A stretch of DNA of 49,510 bases. Source: an uncultured Bacteroidota bacterium. GTDB lineage: Bacteria; Bacteroidota; Bacteroidia; Bacteroidales; Bacteroidaceae. Shown here one piece after another: positions 29,625 through 39,142 of the stretch. The stretch's first letter is position 1, and each line of letters begins with the position of its first letter. The position numbers and the translations under genes are program-made. Location: NCBI GenBank assembly GCA_947168315.1, contig CAMVLL010000007.1, forward strand, positions 1-49,510. Reading direction: 5' to 3'. Below the pieces are notes generated by a model that saw nothing but the letters and a program-made list of their open reading frames with translations, was not told the DNA's origin and ran no database searches.

Positions 29625-29694
29625 TACTGTGTTTTTCATAGTATTAGATTTAAGGTTTACAAAGATTGGCTGTCTGGGAAGATAGCCTTTTTTT
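29625..29694 (+). ncRNA. Candidate attenuator leader or small RNA upstream of the Nudix gene
   Basis: Immediately after the promoter are a 5' hairpin (TACTGTG, five-base loop, CATAGTA; 29625-29643, with one G-T pair), a 24-base unpaired linker, and a terminator-like hairpin (GGCTGTCT / AGATAGCC with a GGGA loop, 29668-29687) followed by seven T (29688-29694). The compact promoter-hairpin-linker-terminator layout of about 65-70 bases is what a small RNA or a transcription attenuator looks like. The linker seems similar to leaders I recall recurring in Bacteroides genomes, which I cannot verify here. Confidence 0.55.
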
Positions 29695-29721
29695 ATATAC
29701 CTACCTAAAAGTCATAGACGT

Positions 29722-35082: not shown

Positions 35083-36444
35083 TTATTTTACGAGCTCCAA
35101 CAAACCTTCCATCGTAACAGTCTGCTGTTCTCCGGTTGTCATATTCTTGACTGACAGTTTGCCTTCGTTCATTTCGTTCTCACCTACCATTACGACGAAT
35201 GGAATATTCTTGTTATTGGCATACGTCATCTGTTTTTTCATCTTGGCAGCATCCGGATAAATCTCTGCTTTGATGCCACTCTCACGCAACTTCAACAAGA
35301 CTTGCAAGCAATAGGCTGCTTCTTTTTCTCCAAAATTTACGAAGAAGACCTGAGTGGCATTAACCGTATCTTTTGGATATAAGTCGAGTTGATTTAAAAC
35401 ATCGTATATTCGGTCGGCACCAAAGGAAATACCGACACCTGACACTCCTGGCATGCCAAACACGCCCGTCAAATTGTCATATCTTCCGCCACCACTGATA
35501 CTACCAATCTCAACATCCAAAGCTTTCACCTCGAAGATGGCTCCCGTATAATAGTTTAATCCTCGTGCTAAGGTAAGATCCAATTCAACCGTATTCTGAA
35601 TCTGCAAAGCAGAAACGGTGTTTAATATGAATTCTGTCTCTTCCACGCCCTTCAAACCTATTTCACTACCTGCCAGAATGTCCTTCAGTTGAGCCAACTT
35701 CTCACTATTCGAACCACTCAAAAGGATGATCGGCTGTAATTTCTCGATAGCTTCCTGCGGAATACCCTTTTCTGCCAATTCGGCATTTACATTTTCAAGT
35801 CCTATTTTATCGAGTTTATCAATGGCTACTGTGATGTCAACAATTCGTTCTGCCTCACCAATAATCTCAGCAATACCTGAAAGGATCTTTCGATTGTTGA
35901 TTTTGATGCAAACCCGTACGCCAAAACGACGGAAAACTCGGTCAATCATCTGAACCAAGTCGACTTCATTCAACAAGGAATCACTACCGACCACATCAGC
36001 ATCACACTGATAGAACTCACGATAACGACCTTTCTGCGGACGGTCGGCGCGCCATACCGGCTGAATTTGAAAACGTTTGAATGGGAAACTGAGTTCTTCA
36101 CGGTGCATCACGACATAACGTGCGAAAGGAACGGTCAAATCATAACGAAGGCCCTTCTCACATAACTTATTTCCAAGTTTTACATGGTCGCGTGTAGCCA
36201 ATTCCTCATCACTGATATGAGTAAAGCAGTCGCCCGAGTTCAACACCTTGAACAACAGTTTATCACCTTCCTCACCATACTTTCCCATCAACGTGGATAA
36301 GTTTTCCATGGAAGGTGTCTCAATCTGTTGGAATCCGAAAAGGTAGAACACTTCGCGGATAGTATCAAATATGTAATTACGTTTCGCCATCTCAACAGGC
36401 GAAAAATCTCTTGTTCCTTTTGGTATACCTGGTTTTGCAGCCAT
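35083..36444 (-). CDS. hisS: Histidyl-tRNA synthetase
   Basis: A 453-residue class-II aminoacyl-tRNA synthetase that charges tRNA-His. Motif 1 lies near the N-terminus after [11 protein letters not shown]; motif 2 is [13 protein letters not shown]; the histidine-specific ARGLNYYTG and motif 3 with GGGRYDNL and GISFGADRI follow; the C-terminal anticodon-binding domain ends the protein. Normal length. A candidate -7 box (TATCTTCG on the minus strand) lies at 36472-36479, 28 bp upstream. Confidence 0.98.
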
Positions 36445-36611: not shown

Positions 36612-36711
36612 AATTAAGCTTGTCACATTGGTGACAAAGGCTTTCCACATTGGTGACAAAGGCTTGTCACATTAGTGACAAGAGCTTTCCACACAGGTGA
36701 CAAGCTTAATT
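36612..36711. repeat. Four-copy 22-bp-period repeat array inside a 15-bp inverted repeat
   Basis: Four copies of a 22-bp unit are placed head to tail: GTGACAA falls at 36631, 36653, 36675 and 36697, exactly 22 bp apart. Units 1 and 3 carry TTGTCAC (36620, 36664) and hence a 7-bp dyad TTGTCAC-N4-GTGACAA; units 2 and 4 have TTTCCAC instead, so there is also a 44-bp alternation. The whole array is bounded by a perfect 15-bp inverted repeat AATTAAGCTTGTCAC (36612-36626) / GTGACAAGCTTAATT (36697-36711). It occupies the 376-bp gap between divergent hisS and the GH3 gene, about 70 bp upstream of the candidate GH3 -7 box. No unique spacers exist, so it is not CRISPR. Confidence 0.9.
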
Positions 36712-36820: not shown

Positions 36821-39142
36821 ATGAAGACCAAAGCATTATTGTTTATCGCCGTTGGAGCCTTACTCGGCTTATCAAGTTGTAATCAACAGAAATGGGTGGA
36901 AGAATCAAAAGGATCGTACAATCTTGTAACTCAACAAGGTGGTCAAACCCTTGGATACTCTCCCGAATCAGGAGTAAAAATTATTACAAATAAAGGTTAT
37001 GCCTTCAAAGACTTGAACCGAAATGGTGTGTTAGACCCTTATGAAGATTGGCGTCTTGATCCTCAGACACGAGCAACCGATCTTGCTCAGCAACTATCGA
37101 TTGAAGAGATTGCCGGATTAATGTTATACAGTGCCCACCAAAGTATTCCAGCTGCCTCTATGGGCGGACGGGGGAATGCCCCGACCTATAATGGTAAGCC
37201 TTTCAATGAAAGTGGAGCCAAAGCATCCGATATTTCAGACGCACAAAAGAAATTTCTTTCAGAAGATAATCTGCGGGCGGTTTTGATAACTCGTGTTCAG
37301 AGTCCCGAAATCGCTGCAGAATGGAACAATAATGTTCAGGCTTTTGTCGAAGGACTGAACCATGGCATCCCAGCTAACAACAGTTCCGATCCACGTCACA
37401 CGGCAACATCCGATGCTGAGTACAATTATGGTGCTGGCGGTCAAATATCCATGTGGCCATCTTCGTTGGGTTTGGCTGCGACATTCGATCCTGCGTTGAT
37501 GAAAACCTTTGGACAAATCGCATCTCAGGAGTATCGTGCTCTTGGAATCGCAACTGCTCTTTCTCCACAAGTCGATTTGGCCACCGATCCACGATGGAGT
37601 CGCTTCAGTGGTACTTTCGGAGAGGGAACAAAACTGGCAATCGAATTGTCACGTGCCTATTGCGACGGCTTCCAGACCTCTCCAACTGAATTATCTGTCG
37701 ATGGTGCTTGGGGCTATCAAAGTGTAAACGCCATGATTAAGCACTGGTATGGCTATGGCGCACAGGAAGGTGGACGTGACTCACACTATAACTATGGCAA
37801 GTATGCCGTTTATCCAGGCAAAAACCTTGAAGAACATAAACTAACTTTCACGGAAGGTGCGTTCAAACTGGAAGATGGAACCCAGATGGCTTCGGCCGTG
37901 ATGCCTATCTACAGTATTTTGTTCAACCAAGACCCGAGTGGTGCTAATCTTGGTGGAAGTTTTAGCAAATGGATGATTGAAAATCAGCTACGTACACAAA
38001 ACAATTTCGATGGTGTAGTTTGTACTGACTGGGGCATCACCAACGATAATAGAGCTGTGGAAGCCTTTGATGGCAAGCCCTGGGGCGTAGAAGGCATGAG
38101 CATTGCTGAGCGTCATTATCAGATTCTGAAAGCAGGAGTGGATCAGTTTGGCGGAAACAACGACAAAGGTCCGGTTTTGGAAGCTTATCAGATGTGGGTA
38201 AACGACTTTGGAAAGGAAAGTGCTGATGCGAGATTCCAGAAATCAGCCTATCGCCTTTTGCTGAATGTTTTCCGTACTGGCCTTTTCGAGAATCCATATC
38301 TTGACCCGAAAGAGACAGCTGTCGTTGTAGGTAAAAGCGATTTTATGGAAGCTGGATACAATGCACAGTTGAAATCAGTGGTTATGTTGAAGAACCATAA
38401 TAAAGCATTGCCTCAGACAGGGAAAAAGAAAGTGTATATCCCCAAAATACACGAGACCCGATCACAAGGTTTCTTCGGCATGTCGGGCGAAGACCGTTGG
38501 GTTGATCCGGTAAACCTCAACCTTGTAAAGAAATACTACGATGTGGTTGAAAAACCTTCCGAAGCCGACTTTGCCATTGCTTTCATCCAAGCACCAAAGA
38601 ACACGCCGGGGTATGATGCGAACGACGCAAAACGTGGTGGTAATGGCTATGTTCCAATCAGTTTGCAATACAATGACTATACGGCGACCTATGCTCGTGC
38701 AACTTCTATCGCAGGCGGAGATCCATTGGAGAAGTTTACGAATAGAACATATAAGGGAAAGACGGTGAAAACAAGTAACAAGGACGACCTAAAAGTGGTA
38801 CTTGACACAAAAGCAAAGATGGGACATAAACCTGTCATCGTTGTTTTGAACACAGGAAAGCCTGTAGTACCTGCCGAATTTGAAGGAAAAGCTGATGCAA
38901 TCCTGATTTCATTTGGCATTCAGAACCAAGCAATCTTCGATATTATCAGCGGTAAGGCAGAACCTTCCGGTTTGTTGCCGATGCAAATGCCGGCAAACAT
39001 GAAAACGGTCGAGGAACAGAACGAAGATGTTCCGCGCGACATGGTTTGTTACAAGGATGCTGATGGAAATATCTACGATTTCGCCTTCGGTATGAACTGG
39101 AGTGGTGTGATTAATGATGGCCGTGTGGCTGCATATAAATAA
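36821..39142 (+). CDS. GH3-family lipoprotein beta-glycosidase
   Basis: A 773-residue lipoprotein (lipobox LSSC; start at ATG 36821, the TTG 6 bp earlier is not needed). An EF-hand-like motif precedes the barrel (DLNRNGVLDPYEDW). The GH3 TIM barrel has the nucleophile in VVCTDWGIT (Asp403) and conserved IKHWYGYG (KHF-like) segments; the C-terminal alpha/beta sandwich follows (VVMLKN, DFAIAFIQAP, GIQNQAIFDII). GH3 enzymes of this type split beta-glucosides or beta-xylosides from oligosaccharide ends. First gene of a four-gene operon with 12-bp and 24-bp gaps. Confidence 0.9.
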   Translation: MKTKALLFIAVGALLGLSSCNQQKWVEESKGSYNLVTQQGGQTLGYSPESGVKIITNKGYAFKDLNRNGVLDPYEDWRLDPQTRATDLAQQLSIEEIAGLMLYSAHQSIPAASMGGRGNAPTYNGKPFNESGAKASDISDAQKKFLSEDNLRAVLITRVQSPEIAAEWNNNVQAFVEGLNHGIPANNSSDPRHTATSDAEYNYGAGGQISMWPSSLGLAATFDPALMKTFGQIASQEYRALGIATALSPQVDLATDPRWSRFSGTFGEGTKLAIELSRAYCDGFQTSPTELSVDGAWGYQSVNAMIKHWYGYGAQEGGRDSHYNYGKYAVYPGKNLEEHKLTFTEGAFKLEDGTQMASAVMPIYSILFNQDPSGANLGGSFSKWMIENQLRTQNNFDGVVCTDWGITNDNRAVEAFDGKPWGVEGMSIAERHYQILKAGVDQFGGNNDKGPVLEAYQMWVNDFGKESADARFQKSAYRLLLNVFRTGLFENPYLDPKETAVVVGKSDFMEAGYNAQLKSVVMLKNHNKALPQTGKKKVYIPKIHETRSQGFFGMSGEDRWVDPVNLNLVKKYYDVVEKPSEADFAIAFIQAPKNTPGYDANDAKRGGNGYVPISLQYNDYTATYARATSIAGGDPLEKFTNRTYKGKTVKTSNKDDLKVVLDTKAKMGHKPVIVVLNTGKPVVPAEFEGKADAILISFGIQNQAIFDIISGKAEPSGLLPMQMPANMKTVEEQNEDVPRDMVCYKDADGNIYDFAFGMNWSGVINDGRVAAYK

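What the first reader, a model, noticed from the sequence alone, without database searches (positions are those of the whole stretch)
36612..36711. 22-bp-period dyad array with 15-bp terminal inverted repeat upstream of the GH3-CotH operon
Four copies of a unit ending GTGACAA recur exactly every 22 bp (36631, 36653, 36675, 36697), alternating TTGTCAC and TTTCCAC left halves, and the array is closed by a perfect 15-bp inverted repeat. A period of 22 bp is about two helical turns, so dimers of a regulator could line up on one face of the DNA. Alternatively, the transcribed array could fold into a long hairpin. It is not CRISPR because no spacers exist. I know of no described element of this form.
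Basis: seen in the sequence. Interest (0 to 1): 0.75.

Follow-up and report, generated by a model that had tools for sequence, protein, structure and literature searches.

The report
Binding-site arrays for HU–winged-helix proteins
The repeat is one of dozens of near-identical four-part arrays scattered through this gut bacterium's genome, and matching arrays in related bacteria often sit just upstream of genes for an unusual HU-type DNA-binding protein that probably binds them, which gives a large and little-understood protein family a target that can be tested.

Summary
It is not tied to the GH3 operon. It is one of 33 arrays found in its 2.57-Mb draft genome (28 with four units). The architecture CAC-N4-GTG every 22 bp occurs in 34 of 61 genomes of the genus (Phocaeicola), and 111 of 116 named database stretches with an exact four-unit match are titled as Bacteroidota.

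The likely partner is an HU-HIG protein (PF18291) with a C-terminal winged helix. Of 30 such genes, 24 have an array 19-81 bp upstream. Arrays occur in 31 of 38 genomes with a close homologue and in 3 of 23 without. The window's draft genome has one such gene, beside one of its arrays.

In a sister species at least 14 arrays occupy the same sites, yet the bases beside GTG differ at all loci together, as expected if sites follow a changing protein. Winged-helix sequence tracks site sequence. Conserved mismatches and unspecific pairing argue against an RNA hairpin.

Best explanation: multi-dimer protein-binding arrays, autoregulatory at the HU gene, architectural or titrating elsewhere. Binding was not tested. 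The papers searched hold no description.

The parts
36612..36711 (.). Whole array: four 22-bp dyad units inside a 15-bp inverted repeat; one of 33 arrays in the genome
36612..36626 (+). Left arm of the terminal inverted repeat; the TA at 36615-36616 is invariant in 33 of 33 own arrays
36620..36637 (.). Unit 1, TTGTCAC-ATTG-GTGACAA; half-sites GTG-ACAA and GTG-ACAA
36642..36659 (.). Unit 2, TTTCCAC-ATTG-GTGACAA; half-sites GTG-GAAA and GTG-ACAA
36664..36681 (.). Unit 3, TTGTCAC-ATTA-GTGACAA; half-sites GTG-ACAA and GTG-ACAA
36686..36703 (.). Unit 4, TTTCCAC-ACAG-GTGACAA; half-sites GTG-GAAA and GTG-ACAA
36697..36711 (-). Right arm of the terminal inverted repeat
35083..36444 (-). hisS (histidyl-tRNA synthetase, named by eye from the translation), divergent left neighbour, not part of the element
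36821..39142 (+).

Best explanation
The array is a multi-dimer DNA-binding site for a trans-acting HU-HIG protein with a C-terminal winged helix (HU-wHTH), encoded elsewhere in the genome (G000:C8:41577-42164). Inferred mechanism: the winged helix reads a half-site of GTG plus about four lineage-specific bases (GTGACAA or GTGGAAA here); two half-sites in CAC-N4-GTG make one dyad; four dyads two helical turns apart take up a cooperative, bent nucleoprotein assembly through the HU domains. At the protein's own gene the array lies at or beside the promoter, so it probably autoregulates. The dispersed arrays, including the one in the window, show no adjacent Bacteroides-type promoter box and favour convergent gene ends, so they most likely act as architectural (nucleoid-organising) or titration sites rather than local operators. 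Shown: architecture, copy number, adjacency, co-occurrence, shared sites and concerted sequence shift. Inferred: binding, bending, autoregulation and the role of dispersed sites.
For: (1) ORFs next to arrays cluster into one leading family: in 21 loci an HU-like protein of about 200 aa lies within 300 bp of the array; Pfam HU-HIG in 4 of 4 tested. The AlphaFold model (mean pLDDT 84, pTM 0.48) has a HU fold and a C-terminal H-H-H-E-E winged-helix pattern; Foldseek gives HU/IHF chains and one weak winged-helix chain, 3f72 (E 0.007, 60 columns). (2) 24 of 30 best HU-wHTH genes have an array 19-81 bp upstream. (3) Arrays in 31 of 38 genomes with a close homologue (E<1e-45) and 3 of 23 without, Fisher p 1.5e-7. 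(4) The window's genome and its sister each have one match at E<=1e-15, in the same gene context (beside a peptidyl-prolyl-isomerase-like gene) and beside an array. (5) Concerted shift: GTG-GAAA 91 of 268 half-sites in own, 0 of 224 in sister; GTG-ATAA 0 of 268 and 93 of 224; the same at 19 matched loci (48 of 152 and 0 of 138; 0 and 52). (6) Mantel correlation of winged-helix and site distances 0.59, partial on HU domain 0.30, p 0.0005 each, n 36. (7) Between two close species CAC/GTG differs at 6 of 336 positions, linkers at 38 of 551, central N4 bases at 27 of 112. (8) A promoter-like TAnnTTTG (recalled Bacteroides -7 box) lies exactly 28 bp before the array in 9 of 24 HU genes, after it in 6, absent in 9; it is absent beside all 33 own arrays in the 60 bp scanned.
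Against: No binding data. Discordant genomes: 7 with the protein but no array at the threshold (G014, G070, G010, G009, G013, G019, G003) and 3 with arrays but no close homologue (G061, G067, G007). 6 of 30 best genes lack an upstream array. The E<1e-45 cut was set after seeing a gap between 2.7e-51 and 1.3e-38. Related genomes are not independent, so the p-values overstate. At least 7 of the 30 genes helped to build the search profile (17 of 23 without them). HU-domain distance also correlates with site distance (r 0.55, partial 0.14, p 0.004), so part of the signal is shared ancestry. The own HU gene itself lacks an exact TAnnTTTG. One array class of G063 (GAACT-type, L287, L293) has no HU-wHTH neighbour among the loci fetched. 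The window's own array has no counterpart found in the sister.
Confidence: 0.77

Rival explanations
1. [quoted passage not shown]
For: Dispersed copies with a common inverted repeat, intergenic, convergent gene ends favoured; an invariant TA at both ends in 33 of 33 copies; one site without the array in the sister. Elements of this general kind exist in Porphyromonas (BrickBuilt, PMC4596501).
Against: At least 14 of 33 arrays are at the same site in the sister with both flanks matching, yet the unit sequence differs genome-wide, so within-species likeness does not come from a recent burst. The only target-duplication signal was 5 of 33 three-base matches at one offset against 1.3 expected, among 96 combinations tested. 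Y1_Tnp in 6 of 61 genomes and not in own. No other transposase family was searched for. Origin as a mobile element long ago is not excluded.
Confidence: 0.12
2. A transcribed RNA hairpin: terminator, 3'-end stabiliser or processed double-stranded RNA.
For: Strong predicted fold on both strands, 0 of 200 shuffles as stable; half of the own arrays lie between convergent genes.
Against: 68 of 135 units keep GTGGAAA opposite GTGACAA, two mismatches in the stem, and matched half-sites occur 30 times against 34.0 expected if independent. Left/right arm complementarity is at expectation column by column. Across 145 arrays each half-site pairs with partners and non-partners alike (about 2.9-3.8 of 6, random 1.5), except the outermost pair at 4.7. 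In 6 of 24 HU genes the promoter-like box lies between array and gene.
Confidence: 0.04
3. An iteron-type replication origin of a VapE/HU satellite-like cassette; dispersed copies are leftovers.
For: VapE/DUF3874 primase-helicase-like genes lie beside arrays in 17 loci, and in 8 loci VapE and HU flank the array.
Against: Own and sister HU-wHTH genes have no VapE neighbour. Leftovers would decay rather than shift in concert. No excision or replication evidence was sought.
Confidence: 0.05

Closest known systems
HU-HIG proteins (Pfam PF18291, 'HU domain fused to wHTH, Ig, or Glycine-rich motif')
   Same: The proteins beside the arrays match this family with a C-terminal winged helix.
   Different: The family entry is about proteins. 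Its DNA target was not found described in the papers searched; the arrays are proposed here as that target.
BrickBuilt MITE/minisatellite of Porphyromonas gingivalis (PMC4596501; abstract and sections 5 and 7 read)
   Same: Bacteroidales; intergenic; about 20 copies of a short tandem repeat within an inverted-repeat element.
   Different: 23-nt direct repeats from 1 to 22.8 copies, non-repetitive leader and tail, IS5-like ends. Here: 22-bp dyads, nearly always four, no leader or tail, and a linked DNA-binding protein.
REP/BIME elements with RAYT transposases (recalled)
   Same: Dispersed palindromic intergenic repeats, common at gene ends.
   Different: Y1_Tnp is rare in the genus and not found in own; dyads mismatched; many sites shared between species while sequence shifts in concert.
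matS/MatP, Noc or parS chromosome-organisation sites (recalled)
   Same: Tens of dispersed dyads read by one protein in trans; GTGAC-type half-sites resemble matS superficially.
   Different: Clustered four dyads, HU-wHTH partner, sequence changing between species.

Membership tests
Binding-site array of an HU-HIG winged-helix protein | Array adjacent to the gene of the cognate protein | tested here: met
   24 of 30 best genes (17 of 23 without genes used to build the profile) have an array within 300 bp upstream
Binding-site array of an HU-HIG winged-helix protein | Arrays and protein co-occur across genomes | tested here: met
   31 of 38 with, 3 of 23 without, Fisher p 1.5e-7, relatedness not corrected
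Binding-site array of an HU-HIG winged-helix protein | Site sequence follows the reading head of the protein | tested here: met
   Mantel 0.59, partial 0.30 (p 0.0005), n 36; HU domain partial 0.14
Binding-site array of an HU-HIG winged-helix protein | Specific binding of protein to DNA | not testable with these tools
   needs gel shift, DAP-seq or ChIP-seq
MITE | Terminal inverted repeats and many dispersed copies | tested here: met
   33 arrays, conserved ends
MITE | Target-site duplication | tested here: not met
   5 of 33 three-base matches at one offset against 1.3 in shuffles, among 96 offset/length combinations; no longer match
MITE | Clean empty sites in relatives | tested here: inconclusive
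   One sister site lacks the array but keeps an end-like remnant; at another the array is shared; G063/G011 comparison gave no clean empty site
MITE | Matching autonomous transposase | not tested
   only PF01797 was searched
REP/BIME with RAYT | RAYT (PF01797) present | tested here: not met
   6 of 61 genomes, none in own draft genome
CRISPR array | Identical repeats separated by unique spacers | tested here: not met
   22-bp units abut; only 4 to 12 bp vary between conserved parts
Known structured RNA (Rfam) | Match to a curated family at gathering score | tested here: not met
   no Rfam match at the array in the window, nor at arrays in 40 further loci scanned

The most novel reading that the evidence does not exclude
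HU-wHTH proteins and their four-dyad arrays form a fast-changing, species-specific chromosome-marking system, domesticated from VapE/HU cassettes. One protein gathers or bends dozens of fixed chromosomal sites, and each lineage shifts protein specificity and all its sites together, so the code separates self from foreign DNA or keeps the nucleoid organisation private to the lineage.
Probability: 0.3. Interest if true: 0.87.

Novelty: new variant of a known kind. Interest (0 to 1): 0.75.

Why it matters
HU-HIG proteins are numerous in Bacteroidales (up to 40 first-look candidates per genome), and the searches here found no described target for them. The arrays offer one in genetically tractable gut commensals such as P. 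vulgatus. Dozens of sites that stay in place while their sequence shifts in concert make protein-DNA co-evolution at genome scale directly testable.

Tried and rejected
Local operator of GH3: rejected, since the array family is dispersed, the sister's GH3 homologue is on another contig, and no TAnnTTTG lies within 60 bp of the array. RNA hairpin: see rivals. RAYT/REP. Recent MITE burst. Phage-borne element: 3 of the IMG/VR contigs carry an exact four-unit match; no HU-wHTH gene in the stretches held. Chromosome-position signal in one complete genome (G063): 23 arrays lean to the GC-skew origin, KS p 0.006-0.035 depending on the assumed origin; too weak and too dependent on 20 sampled stretches to use. 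Hypervariable N4 as an active process: central N4 bases differ at 27 of 112 sites against 229 of 2219 four-fold sites and 409 of 4910 non-coding sites; a modest excess, best read as a free spacer, not pursued. Convergent-end preference: 16 of 31 arrays against 2 of 31 background gaps of at least 100 bp, p 1.6e-4; ordinary convergent gaps are shorter than 100 bp, so this control is biased towards enrichment. In the other genomes context was 24 convergent, 35 tandem, 17 divergent, 13 at an edge and 30 overlapping an ORF call, most of these short, so the preference is not as clear there. Papers: searches found nothing describing such arrays or their binding protein; only BrickBuilt (PMC4596501) was read, in part. 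A 2017 paper on HU/IHF clades that I recalled is not held and was not read.

Full report
What is in the window. TRF gives the array the two best scores in the window, 137 and 111; the next is 41. It lies between divergent hisS and the GH3-type gene.

A dispersed family. A unit-junction pattern (up to 3 mismatches) gives 96 hits in the 2.57-Mb draft genome and 0 for the reversed control. They fall into 33 arrays: 28 with four units, 4 with five, 1 with three. Consensus: WTTAAGC-TTGTCAC-N4-GTGACAA-AGGC-TTTCCAC-N4-GTGACAA, continuing to GCTTAAW. The same sequence was not found in 59 other genomes at up to 2 mismatches.

A conserved architecture with changing sequence. The generic pattern CAC-N4-GTG every 22 bp, three times (up to 1 mismatch), is present in 34 of 61 genomes of the genus, 0 control hits in any. 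At 0 mismatches it is in 6 of 393 genomes drawn from the order, own included, four of them outside the genus in two other families. 111 are titled as Bacteroidota (P. vulgatus ATCC 8482, P. massiliensis, B. xylanisolvens, B. finegoldii, Parabacteroides, Tannerellaceae and others), 5 are not. Some of these are probably unrelated tandem repeats; not every stretch was vetted. Contig lengths identify G011 as P. vulgatus ATCC 8482 and G002 as P. massiliensis, hence the genus Phocaeicola, and the sister G077 as rumen MAG RUG12482. In 145 four-unit arrays (186 found; 36 dropped as longer, 5 as non-Bacteroidota or viral) the ends have a consensus near TTWANCKTNY...RNAMGNTWAA.

Not an RNA hairpin. The fold is very stable. 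But 68 of 135 own units pair GTGGAAA with GTGACAA, two mismatches in seven, and matched half-sites are no commoner than independence predicts (30 against 34.0). Left and right arms show no covariation column by column. Across 145 arrays, half-sites are as complementary to non-partners as to partners (about 2.9-3.8 of 6; random 1.5); only the outermost arms stand out at 4.7. This is what shared protein half-sites would give. No Rfam family matches at the arrays scanned.

The partner. Clustering 567 ORFs beside arrays (loci given: 33 own, 156 from other genomes, 30 from G063/G011, with those lacking a detected array dropped; some are orthologous pairs or overlap) gave two leading families: an HU-like protein in 21 loci and a VapE-like protein in 17, all within 300 bp of the array. 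In 8 loci the two flank the array. Pfam: HU-HIG in 4 of 4, VapE-like plus DUF3874 in 2 of 3, BT4734-like N-domain in 1 of 3. Sequence matches to solved structures cover only the HU half. The model (pLDDT 84, pTM 0.48) shows a HU fold and a C-terminal winged helix.

Three tests of the link. Adjacency: of the 30 best HU-wHTH genes given as loci (one per genome), 24 have an array 19-81 bp upstream. At least 7 of the 30 helped to build the profile (L408, L409, L411, L412, L416, L417, L423); without them it is 17 of 23. Co-occurrence: 31 of 38 genomes with a match below 1e-45 have arrays, 3 of 23 without do; Fisher p 1.5e-7. The cut was placed in an observed gap (2.7e-51 to 1.3e-38) and relatedness is not corrected. 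Discordant: G014, G070, G010, G009, G013, G019, G003 (protein, no array) and G061, G067, G007 (arrays, no close protein). Co-variation: winged-helix and half-site distances correlate (Mantel 0.59), also after removing HU-domain distance (0.30), p 0.0005 each, n 36. HU-domain distance also correlates (0.55, partial 0.14, p 0.004). Read by eye from that table, the 11 proteins with a lysine in the recognition helix (N-x-S-K type) have half-sites mostly GTG-T; the other 25 mostly GTG-A or GTG-G.

Own genome and sister. Each has one match at E<=1e-15 (drafts 89% and 81% complete), orthologous by context beside a peptidyl-prolyl-isomerase-like gene, with an array upstream. HU domains are 65% and winged helices 54% identical. 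With arrays masked, 20 own loci match sister array loci; 19 of 33 with at least one flank near the array, 14 with both. L036 and L047 match the same sister locus, so one of them is not its counterpart. Only 29 sister loci were taken, so this is a lower bound. One sister site lacks the array. Half-sites changed everywhere: GTG-GAAA 91 of 268 in own and 0 of 224 in sister, GTG-ATAA 0 and 93; at the 19 matched loci 48 of 152 against 0 of 138, and 0 against 52. In 14 equal-length pairs half-site identity is 0.68 between orthologues, 0.73 between own paralogues and 0.80 between sister paralogues. So sequence likeness follows the genome, not the site.

Selection. Between G063 and P. vulgatus, over 13 paired arrays, CAC/GTG differs at 6 of 336 positions, linkers at 38 of 551, outer N4 at 11 of 112, inner N4 at 27 of 112, flanks (20-80 bp away) at 67 of 1556. 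Four-fold sites differ at 229 of 2219 and non-coding sites at 409 of 4910 over 11 pairs. The GTG core is constrained and the N4 centre is free.

Promoters. In 24 HU genes a TAnnTTTG box (recalled as the Bacteroides -7 element) lies exactly 28 bp before the array in 9, after it in 6 and nowhere in the scanned stretch in 9. Own dispersed arrays have none within 60 bp, nor has the own HU gene an exact one. Annotated B. finegoldii, P. distasonis and Bacteroides sp. regions labelled 'HU family DNA-binding protein' also carry 22-bp arrays upstream: 2 of 4 match the pattern, and the other 2 were seen by eye with a drifted core (CAC-N4-ATG or similar). The exact pattern therefore undercounts.

Judgement. 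Architecture, dispersion, adjacency, co-occurrence and concerted shift are shown. Binding, bending, autoregulation and the role of dispersed arrays are inferred. The class 'binding-site array for a DNA-binding protein' is known; the four-dyad form, the HU-HIG partner and the genome-wide concerted change are, as far as the searches reached, undescribed.

Noticed in passing
window 29629-29697 (+): Rfam match to FopS, a family of paralogous Bacteroidetes sRNAs (RF04319, 74.8 bits).
   Followed up: no
L239, L240, L241: Three viral-collection contigs hold an exact four-unit 22-bp array but no HU-wHTH gene in the stretches held.
   Followed up: partly
L438, L439, L440 (records NZ_OY725757.1, NZ_OY725913.1, NZ_OY725940.1): Records labelled as plasmids carry rpsL, fusA, mutL, topoisomerase IV and other core genes, so they look like chromosome pieces.
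   Followed up: no
G063, 23 arrays along 5.63 Mb: Arrays lean towards the half of the chromosome around the GC-skew origin (KS p 0.006-0.035).
   Followed up: partly
L298 784-1361 and L308 9554-10051; also L304, L306, L307, L299: One class of arrays in G063/P. vulgatus is embedded in longer similar sequence, with a conserved stretch of about 95 bp some 200 bp from the array.
   Followed up: partly
L440, L439, L441 upstream of the HU gene: In Bacteroides the core drifts to CAC-N4-ATG or similar while the 22-bp period stays.
   Followed up: partly
window 36697-36711 and ends of all own arrays: A weak pyrimidine/purine motif 13-18 bp outside the outer units on both sides, besides an invariant TA.
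   Followed up: no
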